From Aquila chrysaetos chrysaetos (lineage: Eukaryota; Chordata; Aves; Accipitriformes; Accipitridae), in assembly GCF_900496995.4 (NCBI RefSeq), contig NC_044012.1, positions 24,962,759-25,026,758 of the forward strand: a stretch of 64,000 nucleotides of DNA. The letters are read 5' to 3'. Numbering within the stretch: position 1 is the stretch's first letter; every line of letters starts with the position of its first letter. The notes under the pieces were generated by a model that saw nothing but the letters and a program-made list of their open reading frames with translations, ran no database searches and was not told the origin of the DNA. This document shows positions 6,109 to 56,106 of the stretch, piece by piece. The position numbers and the translations under genes are program-made.

Positions 6109-8999
6109 TTAAAAGTGCAACAAAACAGCCCAAAGACCAGAGGTGAGGAGGAGGAGGAGGAAGGAAGAAGAGATGTGTGGGCAGCCTGCCCCAGCCTGGA
6201 AGATGTGCAGTTTCTCAGCATTGGGAAGGAAGACCCTGGCATCCTCCAGGGCCCCGTGAGCTGCCATGGTGAAGTTGGCATCCCCCGAGGTCACCACATC
6301 AAAGACACACGACTGGAAGTAGACATCCTCTACGGGCAACAATTCCTTGCAGAGTGCCCGGGCCGTCTCAGTTGCCACGCGGCCGCGGCAGCACTCGCTG
6401 CGGGAGATGCGCTGACTGCGGGGGCAGCCGCCCACGCAGAGCTGCAGGTCTTGCTCCTCCGTGAAGGCGCGTGCCACCTCCTCGGCTGCCCGGATGGAGA
6501 AGGAGAGCTGACGGCCAGCCTGACGGACAGCGATGGTGGTGCCGATGTACTCCGCCTGGATTTCCACATGCTGCCCGGGACTGCGCTCCCGGATAACCAA
6601 GCTGCTCCCACCTGGCCTCTCGCCCCCGTTCACCGAGCCATCCTCGAAGGCTGCTGGGAGGTTGTCTATCTCAGCCTGGTAGACCTTCTGGTCGATGCAT
6701 TCCTTCATGTTCTTGAAGATGATGGTGAGCTGCAGAGGGCAGATCAAAGGGTGTTTGATCTCACTTGCTGGGTGTGAGAGTGGCGGCCATGTCCCCACCC
6801 CAAGTACCAGCTATCTAGGGGAGGCAAAGCAGATCGCACACGTCTGCCTCACCGATGCATCCCCCTCTGCCCCAAACCATCTCTCCCACATTGCTGCAGT
6901 CCTTTTGGGAAAGCAGCACCTTCCCTACTTTCTTTAATACCATGTAAGCAACTGAAAACTGAGATGGAGCCAAGCCTGGCTGGGCTGCATGCAGGTAATC
7001 CATGAACCACACACTAACCCATCCCCAGGCAGCAATGGGAGCGTTTGCAAGCCTCTCTGGTCCCCTCAGGGACCTTCATCCCACTTGTTCCTGCAGACGT
7101 TCATTCCTGATCCCATGTGGGTTTAGCTGAAGTTATTGCTGCCCTCCCCAGACATTTTAGGGAGTGCCCTAAGCCGTTGCTGCATCCCAGAGGTGTATGG
7201 CTTTGCTGCCAAGCCCTATGCACGAGTGTTACCTTGCTAGTGACCGTAGCGTTGGACCCCTTTGCCACCGGAGAGCTGGTTGCTTGCACAAACAGGTAGT
7301 CATTGTCCAAGAGAGGCCAGGAGCCCTCCACTCGGCAAGTGTGGAAGTCATCATGGAAAGTGCGGATATGGGGGTCCCCGAAAGCTGCGCAGTGCTGGTA
7401 GCTCGGGGGCTGGCCATGCTTGTAGAGAAAACTCTTCTCATAGTTGCAGATATCGAGAGACTCAAAGCCCTGATGGTTGGGGGCCGGGGGCCGGGGTCGG
7501 GGCGGCGATGTGGGACCCTCCTTGGAGCAGTTGTTTTGGATCATGAGGTCCTCGATGCCGTGGACGGCAGAGTGGTAGGCCAGGTCGCCCCGGCACGTGC
7601 GAGCCGTCTTGCGGGTGCAGTGGGAGTAGGAGCGGAGAGCGTTGCAGTACGCTGCATTCCTGTTGGAGCCACGTAGGTTGAGGGTGGCAGCCACGTACTC
7701 GGAGTTGCAGCGCAGGATCTTGCACTGGGAAGAAACTGGGAGAGACGGGATGGCTCGGGGCATCCCGGTAGAGCTGTAGGGGTGGGGAAGGGCAGCCCCT
7801 TCTCCTCCCACCACCTCCCATCATCTGGACCACTCCAGATCTCATGATGGAGACAGTTTCTGGAAGCACTTATCTCCCTGTTTTAACAAACTCAGTGGCC
7901 GGTTTAAATGACCTGCTTCTTACGTGCCTGAGGGGAATGAATCCAGGGTTGCCTGCTGCAGAAACAGGCTGGAGCCCAGCGCAGAGGACAGCCTGGGGGA
8001 AGTCATGGGAACAAAGGGGTGTCCTGAAGCAACTGGGATGTGAGATTGTACCTGAGGCAGGAGCGTGGCCGAGAGCCAGGGCAGCAGTTGTGACTGTGGC
8101 CCTAGGACGTGGCTCAGATGGAGATTCTTCACCCCAGGGCTTGCCAGGGGACAAACAGGAATTTCTGAGCTGGGAAACCCCTTCTTCCCATTGCAACCTT
8201 GGCTGGGCCATGCAATTGCTCTTTCACAAGAGGCTTGACTGTCTGCACCCCTCAAATGTGATTTCTCTGTGCTGCAGGAGGCAGTGCCATGTACCACAGC
8301 TCCAGGAGAGCTAACGAACTTGCTCCAGCAGGGATGATTTAGCTCATTAAGCAGAGGGGTTATAAGGGATAGCTGCCCTTGCAGTAGATGAATGTAAGCT
8401 GGGTTGGGCAAGGTGCTGGGAAGTGAATTTAGGTGTGGCAGGATGTGGGTCTCAGTCCTCCTAGCAGAGTGCTTGGGATGCAGGAAGGAAAGCAAGGGAC
8501 CGAGTGATGGATATGGCTGGTGCCTTCTGCTAGAAGACCCTGGACTTTGGCTGGTCTCAGTACCCTGTTGTCCCTGTCTTATCTTGGGAGGTAATAGAGG
8601 CTTTAAGGGCTTTCCCAGGGAAAGTGCCTGCTGCAGGAGAGCAGGGGGATGCTCTTGTTGTGGAGGCTACCCTGGTAGGGGCAGGTGATGTTGGTGAGAA
8701 TGCTGCCTGCCCTTCCCTCTGGCTGTGGTGGGCCAAGGGCACTCTGATACTGCCTGAGCCTTACGGCTGCCATGAGAGGAGCTTCTGGTTGCTCCAGTCA
8801 CCTCCCAGGAGCTTGTACCCTCCCTGCACCCCGGGACTGCAACTTCCACCGATATCCTTGCCAGAGATGTGACTCTGGCATGGCTCTGCCCATGCAGTTC
8901 CTTACCATGCCCGCAGAACAGGAGGAGGAAGAGAGCTCGAAGGAAGAAGCTGGGGTTTTCTAGCTGCCCTGGGCTCTCACTGCAGGCAGGTTTCCCCAT
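6109..8999 (-). CDS. HJV: Hemojuvelin (RGM family member C), BMP co-receptor
   Basis: Three coding exons read on the minus strand: 8999-8906, 7735-7233 and 6729-6109. They join in frame to 405 codons (human HJV has 426). Phases match: CAT G|TT, then AAG|CTC. The start gives a short signal peptide ending LLLFCGH, equivalent to human LLLLLCGH, directly before SQCKILRCN. Visible features are an RGD at residues 80-82, the GDPH autocleavage site at 151-154 inside the von Willebrand type D-like domain, N-glycosylation sites including N100, a conserved Cys set, and a hydrophobic C terminus (SSSFLLLLL) for GPI attachment. The family acts at the cell surface, presenting BMPs to their receptors, and in mammals drives hepcidin expression in liver. 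Phrases such as [16 protein letters not shown] and [15 protein letters not shown] place it with HJV rather than RGMA or RGMB. Oddity: the usual RNRR furin site reads ECCRGR at 311-316. Confidence 0.95.
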
Positions 9000-28740: not shown

Positions 28741-29189
28741 CTGCCGGAGTTAGCACTGCGCTTTTCCAGAAGATGGATTACCTCCGGAGCATCCATGGGG
28801 ACACGCCGGTGCCGGGGGACATCCTGTCCTGTGCCAGGAGTGGGGTCCCGAGGGCACGTTGAGCCTAACGAAGCACCCGGCTAGTGAGGGAGGGGACATG
28901 GGTGCTGTGGGACCTCTCATTTTTCACTCCCACCCCCCTTTCTCCAGCCCGTATTGGTCTTCTGGGCAGGGCTGGTGGGGAAACTGAGGCACAGAGGGAG
29001 ACAGGCAGAGAGGTGGGAAGGGGCAATTTCTTCACCGCAGCAGAAACGGACGGGCCATCCTGGCATGGGGGGGTCCGGGGCTCTTTGGGGCTGGGGGTGC
29101 TGGACCATGGTGTTGACTCAACAGGGAATTAAGCTCGTTAGAAACTTCCTGGGGCCCAGTGGGGGAGAGACCCCAGGGCAGGAGGTCCC

Positions 29190-33214: not shown

Positions 33215-33650
33215 CATACAGGGATCAGACTGGGGGGCACACTGGGATCAGACTGGGAGGGGAGGGCTACTGGGCGGTCATACTGGGGTGATGGTGGGAC
33301 CATACTGGGATCAAAGTGGTGGAGCATACTGGGATGCTACTGGGACCATACAGGGCTCAGATTGGGGCACATACTGGCATGAGACTGGTATCAGACTGGG
33401 GAGCATACTGGGATGATACTGGGATCAGACTGGGAGGGCATACAGGGATGAGACTGAAGCTGCACACCAGGATAAACCTGGGGGCCACAGTGGGATCTGA
33501 CTGAGGCTGCACTGGGCTTTCACTGAGGGCTCATACTGGTGGGAGCAGGAGAGGCTCATACTGGGAGTGCACAGGGACCACACTGGGGGTGGATGGGGCT
33601 TAACTGGGATGAGCCTGGGACCACCCCATGCCCATACTGGGAGAGGACGG
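33215..33650 (+). repeat. Minisatellite (catactgggatcagactggga)
   Basis: About 430 bases made of cat-actggga and cag-actggga words in units of roughly 10-20 bases. It ends shortly before the 3' end of NR2F5. Confidence 0.85.
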
Positions 33651-33912: not shown

Positions 33913-34334
33913 CTCTTTATAAATAGTCCCCCCTCTCCCTGTGCCCCGCAGGGGGAGGTGCCAGCTGGGGGCTGCTTCCCCCTAGCACTCACAGTTTGGC
34001 GCCCCAAAAACCTGCTTTTCTCCCTTAAATAGCGGGGGAAAAAAAAAAAATCCCCCCCCAGCAGCATCCCTGTCCCTGGGTCCCCATTGTTGGGGTCACT
34101 AACCTCGGTGTCCCCATCTTTGGAGTCCCCTCCTTGGGGGCCAATCCTTGGGGGTCCCCATCTTTGGGACCCCATCCTTGGGGTCCCCATCCTTCATGTC
34201 CCGCTCTTTGGGGTCCCATCATTGGGATCCCATCTTTGGCATCCCATCCTTGGAGTCCCAACCTTGGGATCCCTGTCCTTGGTGTCCCCATCTTTGGGGT
34301 CTCCTCCTTGGGGTCCCCATCCCGGGACAGGGTG
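33913..34334 (-). other. NR2F5: Probable NR2F5 3' UTR
   Basis: Lies between the stop and the AATAAA pair. Much of it (34080-34330) is a minisatellite with ttggggtccccatc-type units of about 18 bases, so the mature mRNA would carry a G/C-rich repetitive 3' UTR. Confidence 0.5.
34080..34330 (+). repeat. Minisatellite in NR2F5 3' UTR
   Basis: Imperfect units of about 18 bases, ggggtccccatcctt and variants, repeated about 14 times right up to the stop codon. Confidence 0.85.
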
Positions 34335-37300
34335 TCACTGCATGGGGCCGTAGGGCCAGTTGATGGTGGCACCGGCAAGCAGCATGTCGCGGATGAGGGT
34401 CTCGATGGGGGTCTTGCCGACCAGGCGGCTGAAGAAGAGCTGCTGGATGCCAGGGGCGGAGACGCTGCGGAGGGCAGGCAGGCGCAGGAGCAGGCGCCCG
34501 AACCGGCTGGGCTGGCTGGGGTGCTGCCGCCGCACGTGCTCCTCCAGTGCGCACTGCGACTTCTCCTGCAGGCCGGCCACCTGCCCCGGGTCTGACAGCC
34601 CCACTGCGTCTGCCCGGAGGGCAAGGGGAAACTGAGGCATGGCCCCGCCCCGGCGGAGACCCTGCCCCTTTAGCTCCACCCATTATTTCCCAGCCCATTC
34701 GTTCCCTTGACACCCAGACCTGCCCCATCAAGCCCGCCCCCTTAGGCTTACCCCATTGGAGCCCCACCCCATTAAGCCCCACCCTAAGACACACCCCATT
34801 AAACTCCACCCAAAGCCGACCCCACTTAGCCCCACCCAGTCATTCCCAGCCCATTCATTCCCTGCACACCCATTGATGCCCACCCCCTTGCAACCCCACC
34901 CCATTAAGCCCCACGCCATTGGAACCCCACCCCCCTTGGAACCCCTACCTCACTAAGCCCCCCTTCATTTAGCCACACCCCATTCAGCCACACCCCATTT
35001 AGCCACACCCAGCCATCCCCAGCCCATTCATTCCCTGCCCACTCATTGACACCCACCCCATTGAAACGCCACCCCATTGGACACCCCCCACCCCAATAAG
35101 CCCCACCCACGACACCACCCCCTTAAGCCCCTCCCCCCCTTGCAGCCCCGCCCCTCCTCACCAGGGGAGAAGAGGGCCACGGCCTTGAGGCAGGCGTACT
35201 CGGCGGCGTCGACGCGCAGCGCCTTCAGCTTCTCCACCTGCTCCTGGAAGAGGCGGATGTGATCCATGAAAGCCACCACGCGGTCGGCAGCCATCGGAGC
35301 GGCGTGGAGGCCAGCGGCGGCCAACAACGGGGCGGCGTGCAATGGTAAAGCCGACTGCGCCGCGTTCAACACGAAGAGCTCGCTCCAACCCAACCGGAGC
35401 AAAGCGACTTGATCGGAAAGTTGCAAATCCGGGAAGAAAGGGATGCCCTTGGCCCATTCGATGGCACTGAAGAGGAGGCGAGCGGCCAGCTCGCAGATGC
35501 TCTCGATGCCGACCACACCGCTGGGTTGCAGGCACTGGGAGCCGTAGCGAGCCGGGGGGTACGGTTCCGCGCGGAGCAGCAAGGAGATGAAGCCGCTTAA
35601 ATAGCCGTGACCGCCATAGGGATCCCCGGGGACCATGGGATATTGGCCGGGACTGCTCGGGGCATGCGCCATGCGGCCTCGCTGCACGGCTGCGGAGGGG
35701 AGCAGGAGGTCAGCACCCCAACCCACCCCCCCCAGCGCCATCACCCCTGTGTGTTGGCCAACACCCCCCCCACCATTCCCCAGGGATTAAATACACAGGC
35801 TGGGGTGGAGGGTGGCTGTTAGAGGGTCCCCAGGGGATGGTGTGCCCCCCACCCATGTTAGAGGGGGGACATGCCACCCGGGATGGGGACAAATTTACCA
35901 CTACCCCCCCCGGTGACCCCCCAGTGCAACGCACTGGGGCTCGCCTGTCTACCAGCTCCCACCTGGCTTTTCACAGGCACACTGAATTTGTCGTATCCCC
36001 CCCATGCAAACATTTGGGGTCACCCCCTTCTTGCAAGGGGACGGTGCTAATGAGGGTCCCCAAGGACATGCTGGGGGGGAGGGGACAGGAGCTCCCCTCT
36101 GGGTCCCACCCCTGGGGTTTTTTACACTTTGGCCTTAAAAAACTCCAAATTGGTGTGTGTTTGGTTTTTTTTTTTCTCTTGGTGATGCTGTGCAGTGGGG
36201 GGGGGGGTCCAGCCTCCTCCTCCCCAGTGCCCCCAGCTCACCGGCCCCCACCCCCAGCATCGCCGCCCCCCGTGGCGAGGGCAGGCTCTGAGCCAGGCTT
36301 AGCCTAATGCAGCGTGACAGTCCCAAGTGTCAGCCAGCGGTCGGGATCGGGGGCCGTGGGAACGGGGGTCCGCAGGGAATGGGTGTCCTTCAGGATTGGG
36401 GGGGTCCCCCAGGATCGGGGGTGCTGGGAGCCTCCTCCTGCTCTCACCCAGCCCTGGGGGTGCAGCGTGTGGCCCCAGCTCCCCCCAAACCCTCCCTCTG
36501 CTCAGCATCGCCCCAGGAGCATTTGCCAGGTGTGGCCCCCTCCTCGCCACCCACACCCCCTCTCTTTGCACCACGAACCTCCAAACCTCCTTTGCAACAC
36601 TACAACCCCTCCGTTTGAAAGACCACTAACTCCTCCCTTTGCATCACCCCAGACCCCCTTTTCATCACCATGTACCCCCAAACCCTCTTTGTTCCTCCAT
36701 GAACCCAAACCCACTTTGCATCACCACGACCCTCCCTTTGCATCACCACGACCCCCCCCCAACCCCTTTTTTCCTCCTTTTTGGGCAAAACAATTCCTTC
36801 AACCCACTGGTGTGTCCTGGAAGGAAACGAGCTTTTTTTAGCCCAAAAAAAGACACGGGAGCAGCCGTGGATGGCTTCCCCCCCCCGGCTCCATCCGCTC
36901 CCTGGCTCACCCCACCTCTGACCGGGCCAGATCCAGGAGCTGAACAAGCCGATAACCCCGAACACCCGCTCCCTTGGCCCCGCCGCAGGATCAGGCCTCA
37001 CGTTCCCCGTGTCTCATCCCGGATGATTTTGGGGAAACCAAAATTTAATCCACCTTTCCCAGCTAAATCCTGCTCCCAGTGTTTGCACCCCCAGCATCCT
37101 TAGGGAATAAATTCAGCCCAAAGCAGTGCTCGGCTCCTGAGCTGCTGGTTTCAACGCTGGCTTCGGTGCTGGATTCAGTGCTGGTTCCCAGCTAGGAAGG
37201 CCAGGATAAGGAGCATCACAAGGAGCACGAGCCGGCGGGTTTGGGACACCCCAATTTGAGCTGGAGCATCCCTGCTCTGGCACGGCCAGCAATGCCATGA

Positions 37301-40300
37301 TCGGACAGGGAAACTGAGGCATGGAGCAGCCAGACCCAGTAAATTAAATCCCCGGGGAGGCTGAATGCCCAGATGCTTTTCAACATTTCCCGTGCCTGGA
37401 GGTGCCGCATCCAGCAATGGCTTCACGCACATCTCAGGACAGCTGGGAGCCCCCCAAAAATCAGAGCCAAGGGGGGGGGTGCGTGCGGGAAATGGGGAAC
37501 CCTGCCCGGGGATTAACACCGCGCCAGGGGATCCACTGTGACCAGGCCCATCGCGCCAGATCCTGGCGTTAAGCAGCAGCAGCAGCAGCAGCTTGTGGCA
37601 ATTCTGAATTAAAACAAAAATTAAAAAAAACCAAAACCAAAACCAAAACCCAACAACCACCCCAAAAAGCTCAAATCTGACTCCAAACAACCCCACTAAG
37701 CAGGGGTTCTCCAGGGCAGGGAAATGGGAATTCGCCTGGATTTTTTTTTTTTTTTTACCCCAGTGAATTAATCCCCAGCTCTAGCTGCATGAAGCAGGCA
37801 GAGATTTGCTACGAGGGGGTCTCGCTGCGCCCAGGACCTCTGCAAAAATCCCTTCCCCAGCCTCCAGACATCCAACCAGCCTTTTTTGGGGAAGAAAAGG
37901 GAAAATTGAGGGTTAGGCTTGAGCTGATTTTGTCCCTGAGCCCGGTCCCACCTAATTCACATTTATTTGTGCAAGCCGTGGTACGTCACTGCAGCCGTGC
38001 CGGGACACTGGGGGGGGTCCCTTTCCCACCTCCCACCACAATTTTCCACCTTATCTGAATTTTTGTGATTTTTTTTTTTTTTTAATGCCAGAAAAGGTGA
38101 CTTCTGAATTTTCAGGATTTTTTTTCTGCTAGAAAAGGCAACTGCTGAATTTTTGTGATTTTTTTTTTTTTAATGCTAAAAAAAGTGACTTTCTGGGTGG
38201 GAGCATCGCTGCTGTCGCTGTTGCCGAAGGACAAACCCATCAATGCTGACTCAAGGGGTTGCAGAATAAATCCCCCGTTTGGCTGAGCCCAGCCTGGGCC
38301 CTCGCTATAATTATTTAGAAATACTAAATTTATAAATAAGGACCTTGAATATAAATAAGAACCCCCCCAGGTCCTTATTCAAGCAGGGAGGATGCTGCAA
38401 GGCAGAGATTTGGAACTGAGGTTTCGGCATGGTGGCAAAGCTGATGCCCCAACACCCTGTTTTGGGCTTAAACCCCCCCAAATCTGCTTTAAAGCTGCTG
38501 CTTTTGGGGGGGGGAAATAAAATCGACCCAAAAATGTGATGATGGGGCTGGTTGGAGGCAGAGGCACAGGCACATGGTGTATCGCTGGGAGCTTGAAATA
38601 TGATTTTAATCCCGGTCACGCTAAATATTCAGACTAATTAACTTCAGATTTACCAGTCACTCGTCCCAAAAAGCCAAATTCGTAATCTTTTGAAGAATAT
38701 CTGTATTATTTCCCTCAAATCCCTGGGATTTTTAACAGCCACATCCCTGGGCTACATATAATGGAGAGGAAAAGTAAATTGTCCCCTTCTCGGCATAGAC
38801 CTGGACCTATAAACCGAGCCTAAGCTAAACCCAAAAGAAATTTAAAGTTGAAACGAGGAGTTTCTATGATGATATAATTAAGCGGAATAAGAAACGGGTT
38901 CCCTCGGCAGAGCCTTTCCTGTGGGAAAAGCCAAAAAAATAATGATGTGGGGATTTATCCCCTCAAAGGCAAAGTGAGGGAGAGAGGGAGCCCCAAAATC
39001 TCTAACCGGGGGGGGGGGGGGGGGGGGGTGATGCTGAATTTGAGGTTGCAAAAAGGAGACGCGAGCTGAAGCCCTGGAGGAGGATGGAGACAGGCGCGGG
39101 GGGATTGGTGGCGTTGGGAGATGCTCGGTCGCCGCCGAGGGAAGTTTTGCTGGGATTTGGGGATGCTCACCCCAAAATGATGGGGCTGAGGGACAGAGGG
39201 AAGATGAAGAGCGAAAGCAAAATGAAAGAGAAGAGGGAGAGGAGTTTTCTTTTTCTCTTTTCCTCCTTTTACTTTCTCTTTCCTTTTCTGCCAGCCCTTT
39301 CTTTCACTTCCTTTCTTTTACTTTCTCTTTCTCCAGGCGCTCCTTTCTCTTTCTCTCCCTTCCCTTTTTCTTTCTCTTTTTCCTTCTGGTTTCTCTTTTT
39401 TGCTCTCTCCCGTTCTCACCTTTCTCTTTCTCTTTTGTCTTTACCATTCAGACTTGCTCGCTCCCCCCCTTCCCCTCTCCATTCCTTCTCCACTTTCACT
39501 TTTTTGTTCCTGCACTTTTTCCTCCTCTTTTTTCCTCCCTTTCCCCTTTTTCTTTTCTTTTTTGCTCCCTCTTGCTCTTTTCCACTTTTCCTCTCCCTTT
39601 CTTTTCTGCCTTCACTCTCACTCTTCCTCGCTCTCGCTGTTCCCTTTTTAGCACCCACTCCCTCTTTTGCACCCTCTGTCCTTTTCCAGCCTCTCGCCTT
39701 CTTTTCCGTCCCCTCTCCTTTGGCACTCACTCTCTCTTCTTTGCCACCCTCTCCTTTTCCATCCTCTCTCCCTTTTTTCCATGCCGTCCCTCTTTTGCAC
39801 CCTCCCTCCCTTTGCATCCTCTTTTTGTATCCCCTCTCCCTCTTCTCCACCTTCTCTCCCTCTTTTCATCCCCTCTCCCTCTTTGCCACCCTCTCTCCTT
39901 TTCCATCCCTTCTCCTTTTCCATCCCCTCTGTCTCTCTTTTCCACCCTCTGTCCCTCTTTTGCACCATCTCCTCCTTTTCCACCTTCTCTCCCTCTTTTC
40001 CATCCCCTCTCCTTCTTTTCTACCCCTTTTCCTTTTTTATCCCCTTTCCTTCTTTTCCACCCTCTGTCCCTCTTTCCCACTCTCTCTCCTTTTCCACCCT
40101 TTCCTCCTTTTCCATCCCCTCTCCCTCTTTTCCACCCTCTGCCCTTCTTTTGCACCCTCTCTCCTTTTGCATCTGTTCTCCTTTTCCATCCCTTCTTCTT
40201 TTCTATCCCTTCTCCTTTTCCATCCCCTCTCCTTCTTTTCCACCCTGTCCCTCTTTTCCAACCTCTGTCATTCTTTTGCATCCTCTCTCCTCCTTTTCCA

Positions 40301-41540
40301 TCCTCTCTCCTTTTTTATCCCTTCTTCTTTCCCAGCCCCTCTCCTCCTCTTCCACCCTCTCTCCCTCTTTACCACCCCCTCTCCTTCTTTTCTATCCCTT
40401 CTTTTCCACCCTGTCCCTCTTTTCCATCCTCTCCCCTTTTCCAACCTCTCTCCTTCTTTTCTGTCCCTTCTCCCTCTTTTCCACCCTCTGTCCTTCTTTT
40501 GCACCCTCTCTCCTTTTCCATCCCCTCTCCTTTTCTACCCATTCCCCTTTTCCAGCCCCTGTCCTTCTTTTCCAACCTGTGTCCCTCTTTTGCACCTTCT
40601 CTCCTTCTTTTTCATCCTCTCTCCTCCTTTGCCATCCCTTCTCCTCCTTTTCTACCCCTTCTCCTTTTCTGGCCCCTCTCCCTCTTTTCCATCCTCTGTC
40701 CTTTCCCAGCCCCTCTCCTCCTTTTCCACATTCTCTCCCTCTTTACCATCCCCTGTCCTTCTTTTCTATCTCTTCTTCTTTTCTAACCCTTCGCCTTTTC
40801 CACCCTCTCTCCCTCTTTTCCACCCTCTCCCCTTTTCCACCCTCTCTCCTTCTTTTCTATCCCTTCTCCCTCTTTTCCACGCTTTGTCCTTCTTTTGCAC
40901 CCTCTTTCCTTTTGCATCTGTTCTCCTTTTCCATCCCCTCTTGTTCTTTTCTATCCCTTCCTTTTTTCCAGCCCCTCTCCCTCTTTTTCACCCTCTGGCC
41001 TTTTCCAGCCCCTCTCCTTCTTTTCCACCTACTCTCCCTCTTTTTCCAGCCCCTCACCTCCTTTTCCAGGCCCTCTCCCCTTTTCCATCCCTTCTTCCTC
41101 TTCGACTTCTCCCCACTCACCCTCCCTTCCCTTTCCCTCCCCTTTCCTCCCGGACCCCCCCCCCCCAAAAAAAAAAACCCACCCCCCCCTCCCCCCCTCC
41201 CAGACCCCCCCAGACCCCCACCTTCCCTCCGCATCCCCACGCGCAGACACTTGCGGAGCCGGCAGTACTGGCACTGGTTGCGGTGGGGTTGATCCACGGG
41301 GCAATCCCGACCCCCCCGGCAGCTGTAGGAAAGATTGCGACGAACGGAGCGTTTGAAGAAGCTTTTGCAGCCCTCGCAGGTCACCTGCCCGTAGTGCTTC
41401 CCGCTCGCCTTGTCCCCACACACCAGGCAGTCCCCCCCCGCCTTCCCCGCCACCTCCGGGCCACCGGGAGGAGGAGGAGGAGGAGGAGGAGGAGGAGGAG
41501 GAAGGGGAGGCTCCGGCCACGGCCCCGCGGTCAGGGCCAT
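34335..41540 (-). CDS. NR2F5: COUP-TF-type nuclear receptor, NR2F5
   Basis: Three exons on the minus strand, 41540-41222, 35689-35162 and 34609-34335, join in frame (GAA G|CC GTG CAG; CCT G|AC GCA) to 373 codons. The A/B region (1-37) is short, starts MALTAGPW and contains a run of 12 or more prolines. The DNA-binding domain spans about 38-103, with the P-box CEGCKS at 55-60 and both zinc modules intact. The linker AVQRGRM follows. The ligand-binding domain holds [32 protein letters not shown] and [21 protein letters not shown], and ends with the COUP-TF signature [12 protein letters not shown] near the AF-2 helix. These match COUP-TFs, not NR2F6. [20 protein letters not shown] and [10 protein letters not shown] fit fish and frog NR2F5 better than NR2F1 or NR2F2, and HJV and SV2A as neighbours agree. 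COUP-TFs bind direct AGGTCA repeats and mostly repress transcription. The sequence is more divergent than NR2F1 or NR2F2. A fast-evolving NR2F1 or NR2F2 is the alternative. Confidence 0.88.
34665..35150 (+). repeat. Minisatellite filling NR2F5 intron 2
   Basis: Nearly all of the short intron between the two ligand-binding-domain exons is ccccattaagccccaccc-type units of about 14-20 bases. Confidence 0.85.
38060..38190 (+). repeat. About three copies of a roughly 55-base unit
   Basis: Each unit reads gaatttttgtgatttt, a poly-T run, aatgc, then agaaaaggtgact. The copies differ mainly in poly-T length. Confidence 0.75.
38590..38880. promoter_or_regulatory. NR2F5: Candidate conserved intronic element of NR2F5
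   Basis: Complex AT-rich sequence with GACTAATTAAC, CTGTATTATTTCC and TACATATAATGG words, set in otherwise G/C-homopolymer-rich intron. Homeodomain-type sites and lack of repetition make it the best intronic enhancer candidate. No alignment was available. Confidence 0.3.
39008..39028 (+). repeat. Poly-G run (21 G)
   Basis: Longest uninterrupted G run in the window, about 0.2 kb from the polypyrimidine tract in the same intron. Confidence 0.9.
39235..41130 (+). repeat. About 1.9 kb polypyrimidine tract in NR2F5 intron 1
   Basis: Almost every base is C or T on the plus strand, interrupted by occasional A and G in words like ttttgcacc and ttttccatcc. From about 39.7 kb it resolves into units of about 20 bases such as ctctctccttttccatcccc. 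On the transcribed strand it is purine-rich (GA). It begins about 90 bases inside the intron after the exon 1 donor. It creates very long Phe/Ser/Leu/Pro frames that are not genes. Confidence 0.95.
41467..41503 (+). repeat. (GGA)n coding for NR2F5 poly-proline
   Basis: A gga triplet run inside NR2F5 exon 1. It reads as CCT/CCC codons on the minus strand and gives the proline run of the A/B domain. Confidence 0.9.
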
Positions 41541-42700
41541 GCTTGGGGGGGGAGCCCCCACCCCCCCCGGGTGAAATGGGGTCTCTTTGGGGAGAGGGAT
41601 GGGGTTGGAGGGGAAGGGGAGGTGGGGGAAGTAAGGGATGGAGGGGGAGAGCTGGGTTTGGGGGTGGGAGGAGAGCCGGGATGGGAAGGGGGGGTGTCCG
41701 GGATGGAGAGGGGTGTCCGGAGTGGAAGGGTGGGAAAGGGGGTCCCGGGTGGAGATTTGGAGGGGGTCAGGGGATGGAGAAGGGAGTCTGGGATGGAGGG
41801 GTGGGAAAGGAGCCCCGGGATGGCGGGGTGGAGAAAGGAGCCCCGGAGCAGGGAGCGTCCGGGCTGGGGGAACGGAGCTCCGGGCTGGGGGAAAAGCCCC
41901 TCCCCGAAGGGACCCCCCGGCCTGGGAGGGACGCCCGGGCTCCGGGAGAGGGACGGGGAAGGACTGGCGGCGGCGGCGGAGGAGGAGAAGGAGGAAGAGA
42001 AAAGTTAATTCTCCTCCCCGCGGGGGCTGCCCGGCGCCGCGGGAGGGTCCGGGGGGGCCGGGCTGGCGGCGGCGGGGGGGGGGCGGCTCCCGGGGGCGGG
42101 GGATGGGGGGGACCGGCAGCCCCGGGGCTGCTGGCGCTGTCCCTGTCCCAGCCCCGGCCGGCCCCCGCGGGGAACCGGCCCGACACCCCCGTCGCCACGG
42201 GGGAGGAACCGGGCGCGGGGGAGGGGGCGGGGGGGGTGCACGGAGCCCTGGGCACCCCCCGTGCGTGGGGGGGTGGTGGTGCAGGGACGTCCGTGCAGCG
42301 GGGGGGGGGGGGAGGGTTGCAGGGACCTGGGTGTGCAACGGGGGGGGGGTGTGTGTGCAATGGGGGGTGTGCAGGGATCTGAGTGTGCAATGGGGGGGTG
42401 TGCACGTGGGTCCGTGTGTGCAATGGGGGCGTGTGTGCAGTGAGCCGAGTGTGCAATGTGAGTGTGTGCGTGCAGGGACCCGAGTGTGCAACGGGGGTGT
42501 GTGTGCGTGTGTGTTTCGTGGGTCACGTGGCGGCGGCGCCGCCAACACCACACCGCACCGCCCCGCCCCGCCCGTAGAAGTCCCGCTGTGCCATATTAGG
42601 GCATGTAGGGCGGGGCGTGTCTCCGTCACCCCCTCTCCCCGCCTCGGAGGGGTGGAGGGCTTGCAGCCAATCAGGGAGAGGCGGGGCGGGGTAAAGCGGT
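41541..42700 (-). promoter_or_regulatory. NR2F5: CpG-rich promoter and 5' UTR region of NR2F5
   Basis: Very CpG-dense sequence directly upstream of the NR2F5 ATG. Going from the distal end it holds a CCAAT motif (agccaatca, 42666-42674), a CArG box (42591-42600), GC boxes (42559-42573) and a CACGTG E-box (42524-42529), then a long G/C-rich leader. The transcription start is not determined. The elements could also serve a divergent transcript. Confidence 0.55.
42591..42600. promoter_or_regulatory. Consensus CArG box (SRF site)
   Basis: ccatattagg matches CC(A/T)6GG exactly and stands out as the only AT-rich word in a GC-rich promoter, next to GC boxes and a CCAAT motif. Confidence 0.55.
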
Positions 42701-42782
42701 GGGGCGTGGCGTATGCTAAAGAAGGGGCGTGGCTGGTCCGTGGGTTTAGGGCCAGGCGGGTCCCCCCGGGAGAGGGGATAAG

Positions 42783-43080
42783 GACGGGGATGGGGGGGCC
42801 AGGGCCGTGTCCCCAGGGAGGAGACAGGGATGGGGACGGGGATGGAGACAGGGACATAGAGCCCAGGGCTGTGTCCCCAGGGACAGGGATGGGGACAGGG
42901 ATAGGGACAGGGACAGGGGGTCCAGGGCCATGTCCCCAGGGACAGGGATGAAGATGGGGACAGGGACAGGGTGTCCAGGACCGTGTCCCCAGGGTCAAGG
43001 ATGGGGCCGGGGGGGTCCAGGGCTGTGTCACTGGGGAGATCAGTGAGGACAGGGGACAGGGAAGGGGACAAGATGGGGAC
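42783..43080 (+). repeat. Minisatellite (gggacagggatggggaca)
   Basis: GGGACA/GGGATG hexamer-based array with an interspersed ccagggctgtgtccccag unit repeated about five times. Confidence 0.85.
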
Positions 43081-46151: not shown

Positions 46152-46568
46152 ATGCGGGGTCCCCTCCTGGCGGCTGCTGGCCGGGGGCTGCGGGCCATGG
46201 GGGACGGCCCTCTGGCCCACGCCATCCGTACCAAGCTGGATGCAGCCCTGCAGCCCACCCACCTCCAAGTCCTGGATGAAAGTTCCCGCCACGGTGGCCC
46301 CCCCGGTGCTGAAACCCATTTTGCGGTGGTGGTGGTGAGCGGGCGTTTCGCCGGGTTGCCCCCGCTGCAGCGGCATCGCCTGATCCATGCTGCCCTTCGC
46401 GCCGAACTGGCCGGACCCCTGCACGCTCTCGCCATCGTCGCCAAGACCCCCCAACAATGGGAAAGTGACCCCCATGTCCCCCCCCGGCCCCCGTGTTTGG
46501 GGGGCTCCAAGCACGAGCGCCACGGCGATGCGGCTGCTGGGGACAGGCAGTCACCCAGGAATCAGTGA
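46152..46568 (+). CDS. BOLA1: BolA-like protein 1, mitochondrial
   Basis: A single coding exon of 138 codons (human BOLA1 has 137). The ATG lies 13 bases after the acceptor at 46138. Residues 1-18 are basic and hydrophobic with few acids (RGPLLAAAGRGLRAM), suiting a mitochondrial presequence. The BolA fold follows: AIRTKLDAAL helix, ETHFAVVVVSGRF strand, PLQRHRLIHAAL helix with the RHR signature at 74-76, and HALAIVAKTPQQW. Histidines at 47, 57 and 91 match those proposed in the family for iron-sulphur ligation with glutaredoxin 5. In mammals the protein acts in mitochondria in iron-sulphur assembly and thiol redox balance. PPCLGGSK near the end matches human PPCLGGNK, after which the bird protein has its own polar tail. 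It lies tail-to-tail with SV2A, as in human 1q21. Confidence 0.95.
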   Translation: MRGPLLAAAGRGLRAMGDGPLAHAIRTKLDAALQPTHLQVLDESSRHGGPPGAETHFAVVVVSGRFAGLPPLQRHRLIHAALRAELAGPLHALAIVAKTPQQWESDPHVPPRPPCLGGSKHERHGDAAAGDRQSPRNQ

Positions 46569-48852: not shown

Positions 48853-51800
48853 TCACTGCAAGACTTGCCCCCGAGTTTCCGGCAATTTCAAGGCGAGGGA
48901 GCTGCCGAGGGCCAGGGCGGCGGAGGCCAGGAAGATGGGCACCGCCTTGGTGATGCCCACAAAGGAGGTGAAGATGCTGATACCCAGCACGGCCGCCAGC
49001 TTGCAAAGGGCATTGAGGAAGCCAAAGGCCGTCGTCCTGGGGAGGGAATGGGGACAAAGCAGAGGTGGGGGTGACATAGCAGCCGGTGGCCCCAAGGGAT
49101 CGCTTCTGGCCTGCATCCCGTAGGGTTGCACCCATGGCGTGCAGGTGGTACCCCAAAATTCACAGCTGGCAGCCCATGTTTTGCAGCTGGTACCCAAAAC
49201 CTTATACCCAGCAGCCAGTACCACACACCCAGCACCCCACAACCGGCACCCAACACCCCAGATCTGGCAGCTGGCACCCAGCACTCCAAACTTCACACCT
49301 GGCACCCACACCCTCACACCTAGCACCCAAAACATTGCACCTGGCACCCCACACCCAGCACCTTCCACCCCATGCCTTGCAGCCAGCACCTCACACCTGG
49401 CACCCTGCACCCCACAACTGGCACCTGGCAACCAAAACCTTGCACCCAGCACCCCACATCTTGCAACCAGCACCCAAAACCTTGCACCTAGCACCCCATG
49501 CCTTGCACCAAGCACCCAAAACCTTGCGCCCAGCACCCTATGTCTTGCACCCAGCACCCAAGCCCTCACACCTGACACCCAAAAACCTCAAACCTGGCAC
49601 TCTGCATCTTCAAACCAGCACCCAAAACCCTGCATCTACCCCTCCGTGCTTTGCACCTGGCATCCAAAACCTCACCCCCAGGACCCGAATCTGGCACCCA
49701 GCATCCAAAACCTCACACCTGGCACCCCACATCTTGCAACCAGCACCCAAAACCTCCCAAGTGGCACCCAAACTCTCCCACTTGGCATCCCACATCTTGC
49801 ACCCAGCACCCCACACCTTGCCCCCAGCACCCTTGTGGGGGCTGCCCGCACCTCTTGTCGGAGGGGTAGAGCTCCACAGTGAGCACATCGAGGGCATTCC
49901 AGGAGGCAATGCTGACGCCGCCGAAGAGGCAGAGCAGTGCGATCATGGCCGACTCACTGTTGCCGAAGGAGAGGAAGAAGCAGCTGACGCAGGACATCAC
50001 GCTGGAGCCGGCTATGGTGGGACACGGGGACAGGTCAGGGTTGGGAAAGGGGATGAGCATCCTTCCCGCCTGCCGCATCGGGGAGGGGAAACTGAGGCAG
50101 GAGATGATAGACTGGTTTGGGTTGGAAGGGACCTTTAAAGGTCACCTAGTCCAACCCCACTCCATGAGTGGGGACATCTCCCACTCAATCAGGTTGCTCA
50201 GAGCCCCGTCCATCCCGACCTCGAATGTCTCCAGCGATGGGGCATCGACCACCTCTCTGGGCAACCTGGGCCAGTGTCTCACCACCCGCAGCGTAAAATA
50301 TTTCTTCCTCAATGCCCACCCAGCATGCGAAGGCGGCCGATCTTGTCCATGAGGAGAGCCGAGACGATGTTCCCGGGGAGGACGGCCAAGGTGCCCAAGA
50401 AGCTGACGAAGTAGATCATGTAGGCATTGTTGTCGTCGCTGAAGTCCAGCTGGCAGCCCTCCTTGTTGTGCAGGAAGGTGCTGTTCACCACTTCGCTGTT
50501 GATGAACTTGTACTCAAAGAGATCTGTGGGGATGGAGAAGGGGTTTGGTGGGGTCACCCCCCCCCATCTCTGTCACCCCCTTGGGGACCGTCCTGACCCC
50601 CCCCCCGACCTGTGTTGTAGAAGACAGTGGAGATGAAGGTGCAGTTCTTGAAGAAGGTGTTGCTGGAGGTGATGTCCTCAAAGTAGCACTCCTCAAAGAG
50701 CGAGTCCTCGAACGTCACCGATTTCATCCTCAGGCCAATGAACCTGGTGGGGTTGGAATGCAGGGGGGAAGAGTCCGGCTCATCACCTCCACTCATGCAA
50801 CGAGCAGGCCCAGCCTCAGCACCCCCCAGGACACACTTGTCGTTGAAGTACTCCCCGCCTTTGTGGATCTGGTTCTCCAGGGTGAAGTTGAAGGTGAAAT
50901 GCCGGACCTTCTCGTGGGTGAAGAGCTTGGTGCGTGAGGCGTACTCGATGTTCTGCAGGTGCTTTATCATGTCCGGGAACCAGACCGTCAGCCCGTAGTA
51001 GCTGCGGGGAGAGAGGGGCTGAACCCGGGCACCACGATGCCCGTCCCGTCCCAGTGCTGCCTGTCCTGTCCCAGTGCTGTCCGACCCACTGCCAGTCCCA
51101 TTCCAGTGCTGTCCGTCCGGTCCCAGTGCTGTCTGTCCCCCTGCCAGTCCCATCCCAGTGCTGCCCATCCCATCCCACTCCCATCCCAGTGCTGTCCGGC
51201 TCCATCCCAGTGCTGCCCGTCCCATTCCAGTCCTGTCTCAGTGCTGCCTGTCCCATCCCAGCACTGTCCATCCCATCCCAGTCCCATCCTAGCATTGTCA
51301 GTCCCATCCCAGTCCCATCCCAGTGCTGCCCATCCAATCCCAGCGCTGCCAGTCCCATCCCAGTCCCATCCCAGTGCTGTCCATCCCATTCTGGCGCTGC
51401 CTGGCTCTGGCCATGCTGTGGGCTGACAGCACCGCTGGATGCCCCCCGCCTCTGGGGCTGACCCCAGCGTCCCACCCCAGCACAGCTGGCGGGTCCCCCC
51501 AGCCCCACCTGAAGGACATGGTGAACCACACGGCCATCATCATCAGCGTGATGCGGCGGTACTCGGGCGCAAAGCACTGCTGGAAGTTGCTCCACACCTA
51601 TGGAGGGGGGGGGGACACGAGAGGTGACAAGGGGACACAGCAGGGGAGTGTGTCCACCCTGGGGCAGGATCTGGCCTCACCTGCTGTGAGAGGTTGAAGA
51701 ATCTGACGAGCCAGCGCCGGTACCACGTGCCGGTGTCCGACTGGATCTCGATGAGTTCGTCCTCCCGCTTGATGGTCTTGATGTGGGTGACCTGCAGGGT

Positions 51801-54800
51801 GGCAGAGGCGGGGACGATTTGGGGATACTGGGAAGCACCAGCCTTGGCCAAAGCTCCCAGGTGAGACCCGTCCCCACCTCGTGCCTCAGTTTCCCCATCC
51901 GTTAAAGCAGGGCTGACCCCCTCCGGGAGGTGCTTTTCCCAGAGGTGGGAATTTGCAGCCCCCTGCTCCTTGAGGACCCCACCCCCAGGCTGCCAGGTGC
52001 CTGGAGGCTCAGCCCTGGGGTGGGGGGGACCTTACCGAGAAGACCCTCTCGGGGTGGCCCTTGGCCCGCATGTTGGTGTCATGGACTTGCTTCAGCACCA
52101 TCCAAGCCTCGTCATGCTTGCCATTCTGCAAGGCAGAGCCCGGGCTCACCCCAGGACCAATCCTGCCCCAGTCCCACCACCCACTTGGGGTCCCTGCTTG
52201 GGTCCTGCCACCCACTTGGGGGTCCCTGTGTAGGTGACCCAATCTCCATCACCCACTTGGGGTCCCTGCCTGTGCCCCGTCACCCACTTAGAGGTCCCTG
52301 CCCGGGTCCCCCCATGTCCCACCACCCACTTGGGGGTCCCTGCCTGGGTCCCTCCATCTCCGTCACCTGCTTGGGGTTCCTGCTTGGGTCCTATCACCCA
52401 CTTGGGGGTCCCTGCCCCCATCCCGCCACCCACTTGGGGGTCCCTGCCTGGGTCCCGCCATCTCCATCACCCACTTGGGGTCCCTGCCTGGCTCTCCCCT
52501 TTTCCACCACCTACTCAGGGACCTCACCCAGGTTCCACCACCCACCTGGGGGTCCCTGCCTGGGTCCCCCCATCTCTGCCACCAGCTCAGGGTCCCTGCC
52601 CAGCTTCCCACCATCCCACCACCCTCTCAGGGACCCTGCTTGCACCCACAACACCATCACCACCCCCCCAGCAGGATACGGCCCTGCATGCTCCCCGGTC
52701 CACTCACCTCCAGGAAGAAGCGGGGGCTCTCGGGCATGGTGGTGAGCGCCCCAATGGCAAAGACCGCGGGGAAGGCGCAGACCAGGACAAAGACCCTCCA
52801 GCTGTGGAACTGGTACGCTGAGCCCATCTGGAAGCTCCAGCCTATGGAGATGGGACAGGACATAGTGGTGGTGCTGAGACCCACCAAACTCGCTGCATGT
52901 TCCGGTACCAGGAAGCTCTTACCGTAGTGGGGGATGATGGCCCAAGCCATGGCGGAGGCGTAGATGCCCCCGATCATCCAGAACATGCAGAGCCAGCTCA
53001 GGTGCTCCCCGCGCTTCTCCTGCGCCAGGAACTCCGAGAAGTAGGAGAAGACAATGGGGATGGAGCCACCGATGCTGGGGGACGGAGGGCAGCACAGCAT
53101 CACCACCCGCGCCGGCATCCCCACCGCCACAACAAACAGGGCATTTCGGCACAGCAAGGGATGGAGCTCAGCCCCCAACATGGGGGGCCCGGACACCTGG
53201 GTCCCCTACACGACACCGTGCCCCGCCCTTACCCCACGCCTGAGAGGAGGCGGCAGAAGAGGAAGGTGCCGTAGCCTTGGACAAAGGAGGAGAAGAAGGC
53301 AAAGACGCTGTTGACGGAGAGGGAGATGAGGAGGCACTGCCTTCGGCCCAGGCGATCGGCCAGCCCGCCCCACAGGAAGGCGCCCACCATCATGCCCAAG
53401 TACACGATGAGCCCTGGGGGGTGGACCGGGGGACACAGTGCCATCAGTCCTGGGGGACCCAGGAACCCACACCCCAAGTTACCCGGTGGAGGGTGACAGT
53501 GATCGGGGCAGGGGCTCGGTGTTGGGGTCCCATGGGGGTCTCAGTGACACCCCCCACCCTGAACTGAGCACAGCCAGGATGCCTGGGTCCCCTCGCAGGG
53601 AGGAGGGGACCGACCCCCACGTATAAGTGGGGGGGTGGAGGGCAGACATCTGCGTTGTCCTCCCTGCTCTGCTTGGGGACCATCGGATGGGGGGTGCAGA
53701 GATGTCCCCAGCCCCAGCCGGCTCCCCAGCATTCCCCATGTCCTCCGCATCCAGCCCCTACTCCTGCCCCAAGTTTGCCAGGTCTCAGGGAAGGAGCGGG
53801 GGACCAGTAACACCTGGGATGGGGAGGGTGCTCAGGCTGCAGCAGGCACCATGGAGAAGCGGGGAACACACCGCATTGCAGCCAACACAGCCGCCTGCAG
53901 TCCCCCCAAACCCGCTCTCAGCATCCCCTTATCAGCTCTGGGCAGGAGGGATGGGGGGGGCTCTGCCTCAGCCCCCCTGCCGCCATGCCTGGCTGCAGGA
54001 GGGAGATAAGCCGGGAGGGACTGCAGGGCTGGGGGGGCCATGAATCACAGCCTGACTGCGCAGTGGCTTTCACACCCCCACCCCAGCCCCCCTCTTCCCT
54101 TTGTTCAGGTGGGGACCAGTGTGGGACTGGGAGAAGGAGGATGATGGGAGCCCTACACCCCGGGGAGGGTTCCCATCACTACCCCCATGTCCCTCCTTGT
54201 CCCCACTTCCTGGCCACTTCCTTCCCCATCTCTTCCTGGCCCCCCACATCTCACTCTGCAGCTCCATGCCCCCCTCCCCCAGCCTTATGGCCCCCCATAT
54301 CTTCTCATGTCCCTCCCTCATCTTGTGGTGTCCCCCCATACCCCATGTCGCTCCATACCCCCTGGATTGTGCCCCCATGTCCTCCCACGTCCCCCCGTAC
54401 CCCCATATCTCCTTGCATCCCTCCACATCTATGTCCCCCCATGTTGCCTCTGTCCCCCCATAGCTCCACATCTCCTGTGTCCCCCCACACCTCCCTGTGG
54501 CCCCCAATCTCCCCCTGTCCTGCCATCTCCCCCATATTTTCTCATGTCCCACCCTCCCCCCATACCTGCTGTGACCCTCCATATCTCCCACGTCCCCCCA
54601 CATCTCCCTGAGTCCCCCTTGTCCTTCCCCATCCTCACACTTCCCATGTCCCCCACCTCCACCTGTGTGTCTCTGATCCCCACATGTCCCCATGTCCCCC
54701 CATGTCCTCTCACATCCCTGTATGCCCTCATGTCCCTCCACATCCCCATAGCTCCCAGGACCCTCCATGTCCCTCCACATCCCTCTGTCTGCTCATGTTT

Positions 54801-56106
54801 CCCCATGTCCCCACCTGCTCGTACCTCCCCACATCTCCCTGTGTCCCCCCATCCCTCATGTCCCCCCATATCCCCTATCTGCTCGTGTCACCCCATACCC
54901 GCTAACATTGCTCATACTCGTGTCCCTCTACATCCTTCCGTATCCCCATCTGGTCATTTTGTCCCATGTCCCCCATACCCACCATGTCCCCTCATCTGCT
55001 CATGTGCCCCCACATCACATGTCCCTCCATATCCCCATCTGCTTGTGTGTCCCCATATCCGTGTCCCTCCATATCTCCATCTGCCCTCATCCCCTATACC
55101 CTCCATGTCCCTCCATCTCCTCAGCTGCCTATGTCCCCCCATATCCCCTATGTCCTTCCATGTTCCCATCTGCTCGTCCCTCCCCACATCTCCCCATGTC
55201 CCCTGTCCCTCCTGTGTCCCTCTATGTCCCCCTATCTGCTCCTGTCACCCTATATCCCCCATCTGCTCATCCCCCGTATCCGTGTCATCCCATATCCGCC
55301 ATCTGCTCTTGTCCCCCATACCCTCGGTGTCCCCTCAACTCCCCATCTGCTCATGTGCCCCCACATCCCATGTCCCTCCATGTCCCCCCACATCTTTCCA
55401 CATGCCTCCTCTCCCAGCACCCCTCCATGTCCCCCCATGTCCCTCCATCCACTCATGCCCCCCCCATCCTTCTACCTGCTCCTGTCCCCCGACATGTCCC
55501 AGCACCCTACCCCGTCCCCTCCTCACCCAGCATGCCCTTGTTGGAGTCGGAGAGGCACATGTCCTTCTCTGCACTGGGCAGGACGAAGCCCACCACGAAG
55601 ACCTCCACGCCGTCAGCCATGAGGGCCAGTCCCAGGACGAAGTAGAGGGTCCACTGGAAGCGGCCGTGGCCACACTCCTGCAGGATGAGCTCGTACTGCT
55701 GCGCCAGCTCCTCCTTGTCCTTCCGTCGCTGTCCCTCGCTGTCATCAAAGGCGCCGACAGCCGCCTCAGCCCCCAACCGCTCCCCAGTCTTCAGTGAGTC
55801 ATGCCGGGGGATGCCCTGGTACTCGCCCTCATAGATCTCGTCCTCCTCGTCGTGACCCTCGGTGGCATCGCTGGAAGCCCCCTCCTCTTCGTTGGCCCCC
55901 TCGCCCCCTCGGTAGTAGCCGTCCTGGGGTGGGTAATCTTCATCATCCTCCTCTTCCTCGAAGCGGGAGTAGGAGCGCTTGGTGTACTCATCCTGCACGC
56001 GGTCCATGCCCTTGCTCACCTTCTTGGCCGCGTGTTTCTTCACCTCCTTGGCGATGTCCTTGGCGCCTCGGATGAACGCCGTCCGGTCTCGGAAGCTCTC
56101 ATCCAT
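48853..56106 (-). CDS. SV2A: Synaptic vesicle glycoprotein 2A
   Basis: Twelve coding exons on the minus strand: 56106-55527, 53413-53233, 53074-52923, 52841-52708, 52125-52036, 51791-51681, 51597-51509, 51001-50837, 50743-50610, 50523-50320, 50011-49852, 49036-48853. All have GT/AG borders and matching phases and give 727 codons (human 742). The N-terminal cytosolic region starts MDESFRDR and has an acidic stretch at about 50-92. Twelve-helix major-facilitator transmembrane segments start near 155, with the DRLGRR motif at 213-218. The large luminal loop (about 446-575) has the pentapeptide-like F-repeats and three N-glycosylation sites, N484, N534 and N559. The end is PETRGQVLQ. The SV2A-type N terminus and EGHDE-DEIYEGEYQGIPR separate it from SV2B and SV2C. 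It is a presynaptic vesicle protein that binds synaptotagmin and tunes release. Most introns carry their own minisatellite. Confidence 0.97.
49170..49835 (+). repeat. Minisatellite in SV2A intron 11 (gcacccagcaccccacacc)
   Basis: About 35 imperfect short units (roughly 18-20 bases) of cacccaaaaccttgcacc and relatives fill most of the 815-base intron. Confidence 0.9.
50104..50316 (-). mobile_element. CR1 LINE 3' fragment in SV2A intron 10
   Basis: On the minus strand it reads GAGGAAGAAATATTTTACGC, then ACACTGGCCCAGGTTGCCCA, GAGCAACCTGATTGAGTGGG and GGTCCCTTCCAACCCAAACC, ending TCTATCATCTC. This is a clear CR1 3' end in the same sense as SV2A. Its truncated 5' side runs to within a few bases of the exon 10 splice donor. 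Confidence 0.92.
51040..51410 (+). repeat. Minisatellite in SV2A intron 7 (cccatcccagtgctgtcc)
   Basis: About 20 imperfect units of roughly 12-20 bases built from cccagtgctg and cccatccca. Confidence 0.9.
51880..51907 (+). repeat. MIR-like core motif in SV2A intron 5
   Basis: Reads gtgcctcagtttccccatcc followed by gttaaag. This is the copy in the window closest to the MIR 3' domain (ctcagtttccccatctgtaaa). Confidence 0.5.
52145..52675 (+). repeat. Minisatellite in SV2A intron 4 (cacccacttgggggtccctg)
   Basis: About 14 imperfect units of roughly 35-40 bases: caccacccacttgggg, gtccctgcctgggtcc, and so on. It fills nearly the whole 582-base intron. Confidence 0.9.
54180..55500 (+). repeat. Minisatellite in SV2A intron 1 (catgtccccccatatc)
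   Basis: About 1.3 kb of catgtccccccatatctcc-type units with an embedded higher-order word (atctgctcatgtcccc) in its second half. It produces long open frames on both strands that are artefacts of the repeat. Confidence 0.9.

What the first reader, a model, noticed from the sequence alone, without database searches (positions are those of the whole stretch)
34335..41540. A bird NR2F5: the COUP-TF gene that mammals lost
The three exons encode a full COUP-TF receptor with DNA-binding domain, hinge, ligand-binding domain and AF-2 end all in frame. From what I know of the family, its wording ([40 protein letters not shown]) sits with fish and amphibian NR2F5, not NR2F1, NR2F2 or NR2F6. Its neighbours are HJV and SV2A, the positions expected for the fourth copy. 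Mammals have no such gene, and in birds it would be easily missed because of its extreme GC content and repeats.
Basis: partly seen in the sequence, partly recalled or inferred. Interest (0 to 1): 0.85.

Follow-up and report, generated by a model that had tools for sequence, protein, structure and literature searches.

The report
Bird NR2F5, a supposedly lost receptor
This bird genome holds an intact, correctly placed copy of NR2F5, a gene-control protein of the COUP-TF family that mammals lack and that a published survey also lists as absent from birds.

Summary
Minus-strand exons 41540-41222, 35689-35162 and 34609-34335, joined by two GT-AG phase-1 introns, encode a 373-residue COUP-TF with both domains intact. 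The same genome holds NR2F1, NR2F2 and NR2F6 elsewhere, so this is a fourth gene. Position identifies it: it lies between TXNIP/HJV and BOLA1/SV2A, 60 kb from RBM8A, matching published NR2F5 neighbours. Each of the four COUP-TF loci lies within about 2 Mb of one of the four MEF2 loci found, as expected of a genome-duplication quartet. It lacks the intron that marks NR2F6. Sequence alone only places it in the NR2F5/NR2F6 half: trees put it beside NR2F6 rather than zebrafish nr2f5, a pull that fades when GC-biased columns are dropped. Feather-keratin arrays 0.7 Mb away show that the host is a bird. A 2021 survey states NR2F5 is absent in birds, and a 2026 survey of avian gene loss considered only genes with human orthologues. 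Expression and other birds were not testable.

The parts
41222..41540 (-). NR2F5 coding exon 1: ATG, short A/B region with a proline run from a GGA/TCC trinucleotide repeat (41467-41510), whole DNA-binding domain, ends phase 1 (MRRE|)
   Evidence: N-terminus MALTAGPW resembles MAMVxGxW of own NR2F2/NR2F6
35690..41221 (-). intron 1 (GT-AG, phase 1); carries a pyrimidine-rich (+ strand) imperfect tandem array at 39658-41102
35162..35689 (-). coding exon 2: hinge (SSPGQY, DPYGG) and first part of the ligand-binding domain
34610..35161 (-). intron 2 (GT-AG, phase 1), 15-34 bp minisatellites
34335..34609 (-). coding exon 3: rest of the ligand-binding domain, AF-2 helix ([13 protein letters not shown]; the label is from general knowledge), TGA stop
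34078..34322 (-). minisatellite directly after the stop codon (presumed 3' UTR); nearest downstream AATAAA/ATTAAA on this strand at 33910
41222..42800 (-). CpG-rich stretch (GC 0.69-0.79, CpG observed/expected 0.54-0.80 in 400-base bins 41200-42799) over exon 1 and upstream: probable promoter, inferred
6199..7727 (-). neighbour: HJV (RGMc), two exons
46164..46511 (+). neighbour: BOLA1
48856..56106 (-). neighbour: SV2A, exons
   Evidence: recalled human SV2A; SV2 luminal domain

Best explanation
The window holds an intact NR2F5, the fourth COUP-TF left by the two early vertebrate genome duplications, kept in its ancestral place in a bird. Shown: complete reading frame, splice sites, domains, intron code, coexistence with NR2F1, NR2F2 and NR2F6, and conserved synteny. 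Inferred: it is transcribed from the CpG-rich region at about 41.2-42.8 kb and acts as other COUP-TFs do. That is, its P-box zinc fingers read direct repeats of AGGTCA as homodimers or with RXR, and its ligand-binding domain, normally held in a self-repressed form, recruits co-repressors and competes with retinoid-type receptors (family knowledge, not tested). Its developmental role is probably partly redundant with NR2F1 and NR2F2. The reported absence from birds most likely reflects GC-rich, repeat-rich sequence that dropped out of earlier assemblies, together with searches that start from human genes.
For: Gene model and domains. The ten best matches in the genome fall at four COUP-TF loci: C9 window, C37 (exons 2+3 with the NR2F1 hinge), C5 NR2F2 and C12 NR2F6. 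NR2F6 has its DNA-binding domain split over two exons; the window gene has not, and one search gives that intron as unique to NR2F6. Neighbours RBM8A at C9:24.935 Mb, POLR3GL and TXNIP left of the window, HJV, BOLA1, SV2A, and SF3B4 to the right, against the published NR2F5 neighbours Rbm8a, Txnip and Bola1. All 4 MEF2-domain matches lie on the four COUP-TF contigs, 2.0, 1.4, 0.3 and 1.5 Mb from them. AU tests: clade with own NR2F2 p 0.0035, with NR2F1 0.008, with own NR2F6 to the exclusion of human NR2F6 6e-10. The glycine in CRGGRDC fits the Znf II legend for Nr2f5. Nine of nine conserved cysteines of the DNA-binding domain (eight are the zinc ligands, from general knowledge) and the P-box CEGCKS are present.
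Against: Sequence trees do not group it with zebrafish nr2f5. The free tree puts it beside NR2F6 (88/91; 82/87 without the A/B domain; 90/92 without human NR2F6); the held clade with zebrafish nr2f5 is 4.8, 4.4 and 6.1 log-units worse (AU p 0.069, 0.104, 0.051). Over the full length the highest identity is to recalled human NR2F1 (75.2%), against 72.3% to zebrafish nr2f5; it shares 20 states with own NR2F6 alone against 7 with zebrafish nr2f5 alone. Once variable columns that hold G, A, R or P are dropped, NR2F6 support falls to 43/7, the difference is 0.4 log-units (p 0.36), and zebrafish nr2f5 is the most identical row (90%). Its branch is long, with 15 of 212 otherwise invariant columns changed, 5 of 55 in the DNA-binding domain including F53V and H85P. 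The zebrafish, human and fly rows were recalled. There is no RNA evidence and no second bird. The 2021 survey reports absence in birds, and the 2026 survey holds that many avian gene losses are real, with 4-7% on chromosomes 22, 25 and 33.
Confidence: 0.93

Rival explanations
1. It is one of the ordinary bird COUP-TFs (NR2F1, NR2F2 or NR2F6), misnamed.
For: 70-75% identity to each of the own paralogues.
Against: All three are present elsewhere in the same genome; AU tests reject a clade with own NR2F2, with NR2F1, and with own NR2F6 to the exclusion of human NR2F6; intron code (NR2F6) and synteny differ.
Confidence: 0.01
2. It is a lineage-specific duplicate of NR2F6 or another COUP-TF that landed beside SV2A.
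For: The free trees place it beside NR2F6 and 20 states are shared with own NR2F6 alone.
Against: It lacks the NR2F6 intron in the second zinc finger; a split from own NR2F6 after the human-bird split is rejected (p 6e-10); the NR2F6 pull vanishes without GC-biased columns; a copy would have had to land at the ancestral NR2F5 place on the chromosome of the fourth MEF2.
Confidence: 0.03
3. It is a recently dead or silent NR2F5 whose frame happens to be still open; other birds lack it.
For: Fast branch (0.26-0.47 against 0.10-0.20 for zebrafish nr2f5), changes at otherwise invariant sites, repeats in introns and after the stop, published report of absence in birds.
Against: Open frame, all splice sites and all nine DNA-binding-domain cysteines intact; window-only states fall at invariant columns half as often as expected (15 against 30 of 48; P 1.6e-6, a whole-history measure); simulated neutral decay leaves the frame open in 53% of runs at 0.02, 23% at 0.05, 7% at 0.1 and 0.8% at 0.2 substitutions per site without indels. 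Recent inactivation cannot be excluded without RNA.
Confidence: 0.06

Closest known systems
NR2F5 (nr2f5/svp46) of zebrafish, frog, coelacanth, gecko, alligator and green sea turtle
   Same: COUP-TF domains, two phase-1 introns, no zinc-finger intron, glycine in the second zinc finger, [10 protein letters not shown] and SSPGQY wording (recalled zebrafish row), neighbours RBM8A, TXNIP, BOLA1
   Different: In a bird; faster change with GC-favoured residues; short A/B region with a proline run; introns filled with minisatellites
NR2F6 (EAR2)
   Same: Sister ohnologue in the published tree; shares [20 protein letters not shown] and other, partly GC-favoured, states
   Different: NR2F6 has the extra phase-2 intron, CRSNRDCQ and GVFTC; a separate locus at C12 here
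NR2F1 and NR2F2 (COUP-TFI and II)
   Same: Domain plan, intron phases, 70-75% identity to the own copies
   Different: CRANRNCP (NR2F2 here) and a TQP...GDPLN hinge; separate loci on C37 and C5; a clade with both gives p 0.030, 0.054 and 0.047

Membership tests
NR2F (COUP-TF) | zf-C4 with P-box CEGCKS plus COUP-TF ligand-binding domain | tested here: met
NR2F5 | two phase-1 introns and no intron in the second zinc finger | tested here: met
   against
NR2F5 | neighbourhood of RBM8A, TXNIP, BOLA1 | tested here: met
   against
NR2F5 | fourth locus of the duplication quartet, distinct from NR2F1, NR2F2, NR2F6, with a MEF2 on the same chromosome | tested here: met
   the MEF2 copies were named by place, not by a tree
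NR2F5 | glycine in the second zinc finger (CRGxRDC) where NR2F2 here has alanine and NR2F6 serine | tested here: met
   the published letters are inferred from a figure legend only
NR2F5 | groups with other NR2F5 in a protein tree | tested here: inconclusive
   one recalled zebrafish row only; not rejected at 0.05 (p 0.069, 0.051, 0.104, 0.357), not favoured
NR2F6 | phase-2 intron in the second zinc finger | tested here: not met
   own NR2F6 on C12 has the split
NR2F1/NR2F2 | branches with NR2F1 or NR2F2 | tested here: not met
   p 0.030 (both together), 0.008 (NR2F1), 0.0035 (NR2F2); both together p 0.054 and 0.047
Functional gene | spliced transcript, binding to AGGTCA direct repeats | not testable with these tools
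   no RNA data or assays on hand

The most novel reading that the evidence does not exclude
NR2F5 was never lost in birds as a whole: it is a working fourth COUP-TF, hidden by GC and repeats, and is one of a class of doubly invisible genes (lost in mammals, so missing from human-based search lists; unassembled in birds). If it keeps the role known from zebrafish pharyngeal arches, it would be an overlooked factor in patterning the upper beak.
Probability: 0.5. Interest if true: 0.72.

Novelty: new member of a known kind. Interest (0 to 1): 0.55.

Why it matters
It contradicts, for at least one bird, a published statement that NR2F5 is absent from birds (PMC8608329), and so moves the loss, if any, to branches within birds. 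It shows a blind spot: a 2026 survey of avian gene loss (PMC12954441) counted only ohnologues with human orthologues, and the duck recovery of missing genes used human protein queries (PMC8505442), so genes that mammals lack could not appear in either. COUP-TF redundancy in avian development may have been read with one player missing.

Tried and rejected
Considered and rejected: NR2F1/NR2F2/NR2F6 misnamed; NR2F6 duplicate; retrocopy (introns kept); chance frame. Looked for further relatives in genome contigs and viral contigs: none, as expected for prokaryote and virus collections. Recalled human PEX11B gave no match in the 134-kb region searched. An exon-2 end one base short gave a false frame and was corrected. 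Structure prediction was not run: the domains are clear by sequence. ARRDC paralogues near the other loci were asked for and never answered. Of six window stretches given to Pfam, four matched a family; 28031-28777 and 55510-56328 (the SV2A N-terminus) did not.

Papers. PMC8608329: abstract, passages, and the sections on synteny and on searches read. PMC12954441: passages and part 1 of 2 of its section on gene loss. PMC8505442, PMC9516821, PMC12045641, PMC4339804, PMC3133656: passages only. The listings for NR2F5 show no bird NR2F5: 21 papers in the open library hold the word, judged by title and abstract start apart from PMC8608329, PMC4339804 and PMC12045641. Subscription papers, supplements, RefSeq and Ensembl annotation were not searched, so a database entry or a report for this gene may exist.
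Full report
What is there. On the minus strand, an ATG at 41540 opens exon 1 (41540-41222). It is followed by exon 2 (35689-35162) and exon 3 (34609-34335, ending in TGA). Donors and acceptors are GT and AG, both introns fall after the first base of a codon, and the 1122-bp coding sequence reads 373 residues without a stop. Pfam gives the C4 zinc-finger domain and the nuclear-receptor ligand-binding domain; the nearest solved structure by sequence is the human COUP-TFII ligand-binding domain, followed by NR2F6. The N-terminus MALTAGPW resembles MAMVVGAW of own NR2F2 and MAMVAGGW of own NR2F6, which supports the start codon. The nine conserved cysteines of the DNA-binding domain and the P-box CEGCKS are intact.

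Which animal. The genome has 1.23 Gb in 144 contigs, and the window is C9:24962759-25026758. A recalled feather keratin finds 144 matches; the best six lie on C9 at 25.72-25.74 Mb, at 95% identity, about 0.7 Mb from the gene. The host is a bird; the species was not identified.

Which COUP-TF. The genome search gives 86 matches to the protein. The ten best (E 9e-35 or lower) fall at four loci: C9 (window), C37 near 2.30 Mb, C5 near 56.18 Mb, and C12 near 1.345 Mb; the rest include the split C12 zinc-finger exons and, by their low scores, other nuclear receptors that I did not name. The hinge wording and the split zinc-finger domain mark the other three as NR2F1, NR2F2 and NR2F6. The C12 gene breaks its DNA-binding domain after TCR, the intron that the 2021 survey calls unique to NR2F6; the window gene has no such break. 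The window gene therefore is a fourth COUP-TF with the NR2F1/2/5 intron code. Exon 1 of the own NR2F1 was not found.

Position. Going along C9 one meets RBM8A (24.935 Mb, 26 kb left of the window), POLR3GL, TXNIP (3-6 kb left of the window), HJV (6.2-7.7 kb in the window), this gene, BOLA1 (46.2 kb), SV2A (48.9-56.1 kb) and SF3B4 (5-6 kb right of the window) (recalled human queries). The 2021 survey names Rbm8a, Txnip and Bola1 in connection with NR2F5-type loci and says chicken kept the flanks without the gene. A MEF2 domain query finds four matches in the genome. One lies near each COUP-TF: 2.0 Mb on C37, 1.4 Mb on C5, 0.3 Mb on C12 and 1.5 Mb on C9. The four pairs are what the two early vertebrate duplications would leave. 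They were named by place, not by a MEF2 tree.

Trees, told in full. Only eight rows were available: four own proteins and four recalled ones. A clade with own NR2F2 alone (p 0.0035), with NR2F1 (p 0.008), or with own NR2F6 to the exclusion of human NR2F6 (p 6e-10) is rejected. A clade with NR2F1 and NR2F2 together gives p 0.030 and 0.054 and 0.047 in the trimmed sets. The NR2F5+NR2F6 half has support 94/95. Within it the free tree places the gene beside NR2F6 (88/91; 82/87 without the A/B domain; 90/92 without human NR2F6); the clade with zebrafish nr2f5 is not rejected at 0.05 (p 0.069, 0.104 and 0.051) but is not favoured. Over the full length its highest identity is to recalled human NR2F1 (75.2%), with 72.3% to zebrafish nr2f5. 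Of the states shared with one paralogue type only, 20 are with own NR2F6, 7 with zebrafish nr2f5 and 3 with NR2F2. Many of the NR2F6-type states are alanine, proline, arginine or glycine, as expected from GC pressure in both genes. When variable columns that hold any of those letters are dropped, NR2F6 support falls to 43/7, the two placements differ by 0.4 log-units (p 0.36), and zebrafish nr2f5 is the row most identical to the window gene (90% over 254 columns). I read this as attraction by composition; synteny and intron code decide.

Alive or dead. Of 212 columns invariant in the other rows (337 compared), 15 are changed here, where 30 would be expected from 48 window-only states (P 1.6e-6). 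That covers the whole history since the duplications, not birds alone. In simulation of neutral change (2000 runs each) the frame stays open in 53% of runs at 0.02, 23% at 0.05, 7% at 0.1 and 0.8% at 0.2 substitutions per site; with indels at 0.1 per substitution the figures are 11%, 0.4%, 0 and 0. Taking some 0.2 neutral substitutions per site since early birds (my estimate from general knowledge), a loss at the base of birds is very unlikely; a recent death is not excluded. The branch is long and F53V and H85P sit in the DNA-binding domain. GC3 is 0.82.

Why it could be missed. Exons have 65-70% GC. Intron 1 carries a tandem array of about 1.4 kb (39658-41102; 88% C+T over 39200-41100), intron 2 and the stretch after the stop are minisatellites, and bins from 34.0 to 59.5 kb have 30-33 quadruplex motifs per 8.5 kb against 2-12 further left. 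Published work describes false gene loss of this kind in birds and 1.23 Mb gained on zebra finch chromosome 25 (PMC9516821 passages); that this region corresponds to chicken chromosome 25 is from general knowledge. The 2021 NR2F survey used human NR2F queries, the 2026 survey of avian losses states that only ohnologues with human orthologues were searched, and the duck study used human protein queries. NR2F5 could not appear on the last two lists. The same 2026 paper holds that many avian losses are real, so loss in some birds remains possible.

How it probably works. From general knowledge of the family, COUP-TFs bind direct repeats of AGGTCA as homodimers or with RXR and mostly repress. The P-box and AF-2 helix are kept here, so the same is expected; this is inference. 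[quoted passage not shown] single mutants are viable. Whether a bird uses it for the upper beak is open and testable.

Verdict. Observation confirmed, interpretation supported: a bird NR2F5. It is a new member of a known kind, but it contradicts the printed record and points to a class of genes that human-based searches cannot see.

Noticed in passing
L010 and L011 (C37:2295500-2315000): Exon 1 of the bird's own NR2F1 is not found; the 19.5 kb around the gene hold 5075 N (1702 + 3373), so it may lie in a gap or masked stretch.
   Followed up: partly
window 39658-41102: Pyrimidine-rich imperfect tandem array (about 20/37-bp units) filling the 5' end of intron 1.
   Followed up: partly
window 6199-7727: HJV (hemojuvelin) with RGM_N and RGM_C domains open in a bird; whether it is reported elsewhere in birds was not settled.
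   Followed up: partly
G000:C9:25.64-25.80 Mb: Very regular keratin arrays, some feather-keratin copies spaced exactly 3717 or 3010 bases; one match lies in an 'open frame' of 21490 codons, perhaps a run of N or a stop-free satellite.
   Followed up: no
window 33278-33456 and 34078-34322: Minisatellites immediately downstream of the gene, with different units from the intron arrays.
   Followed up: no
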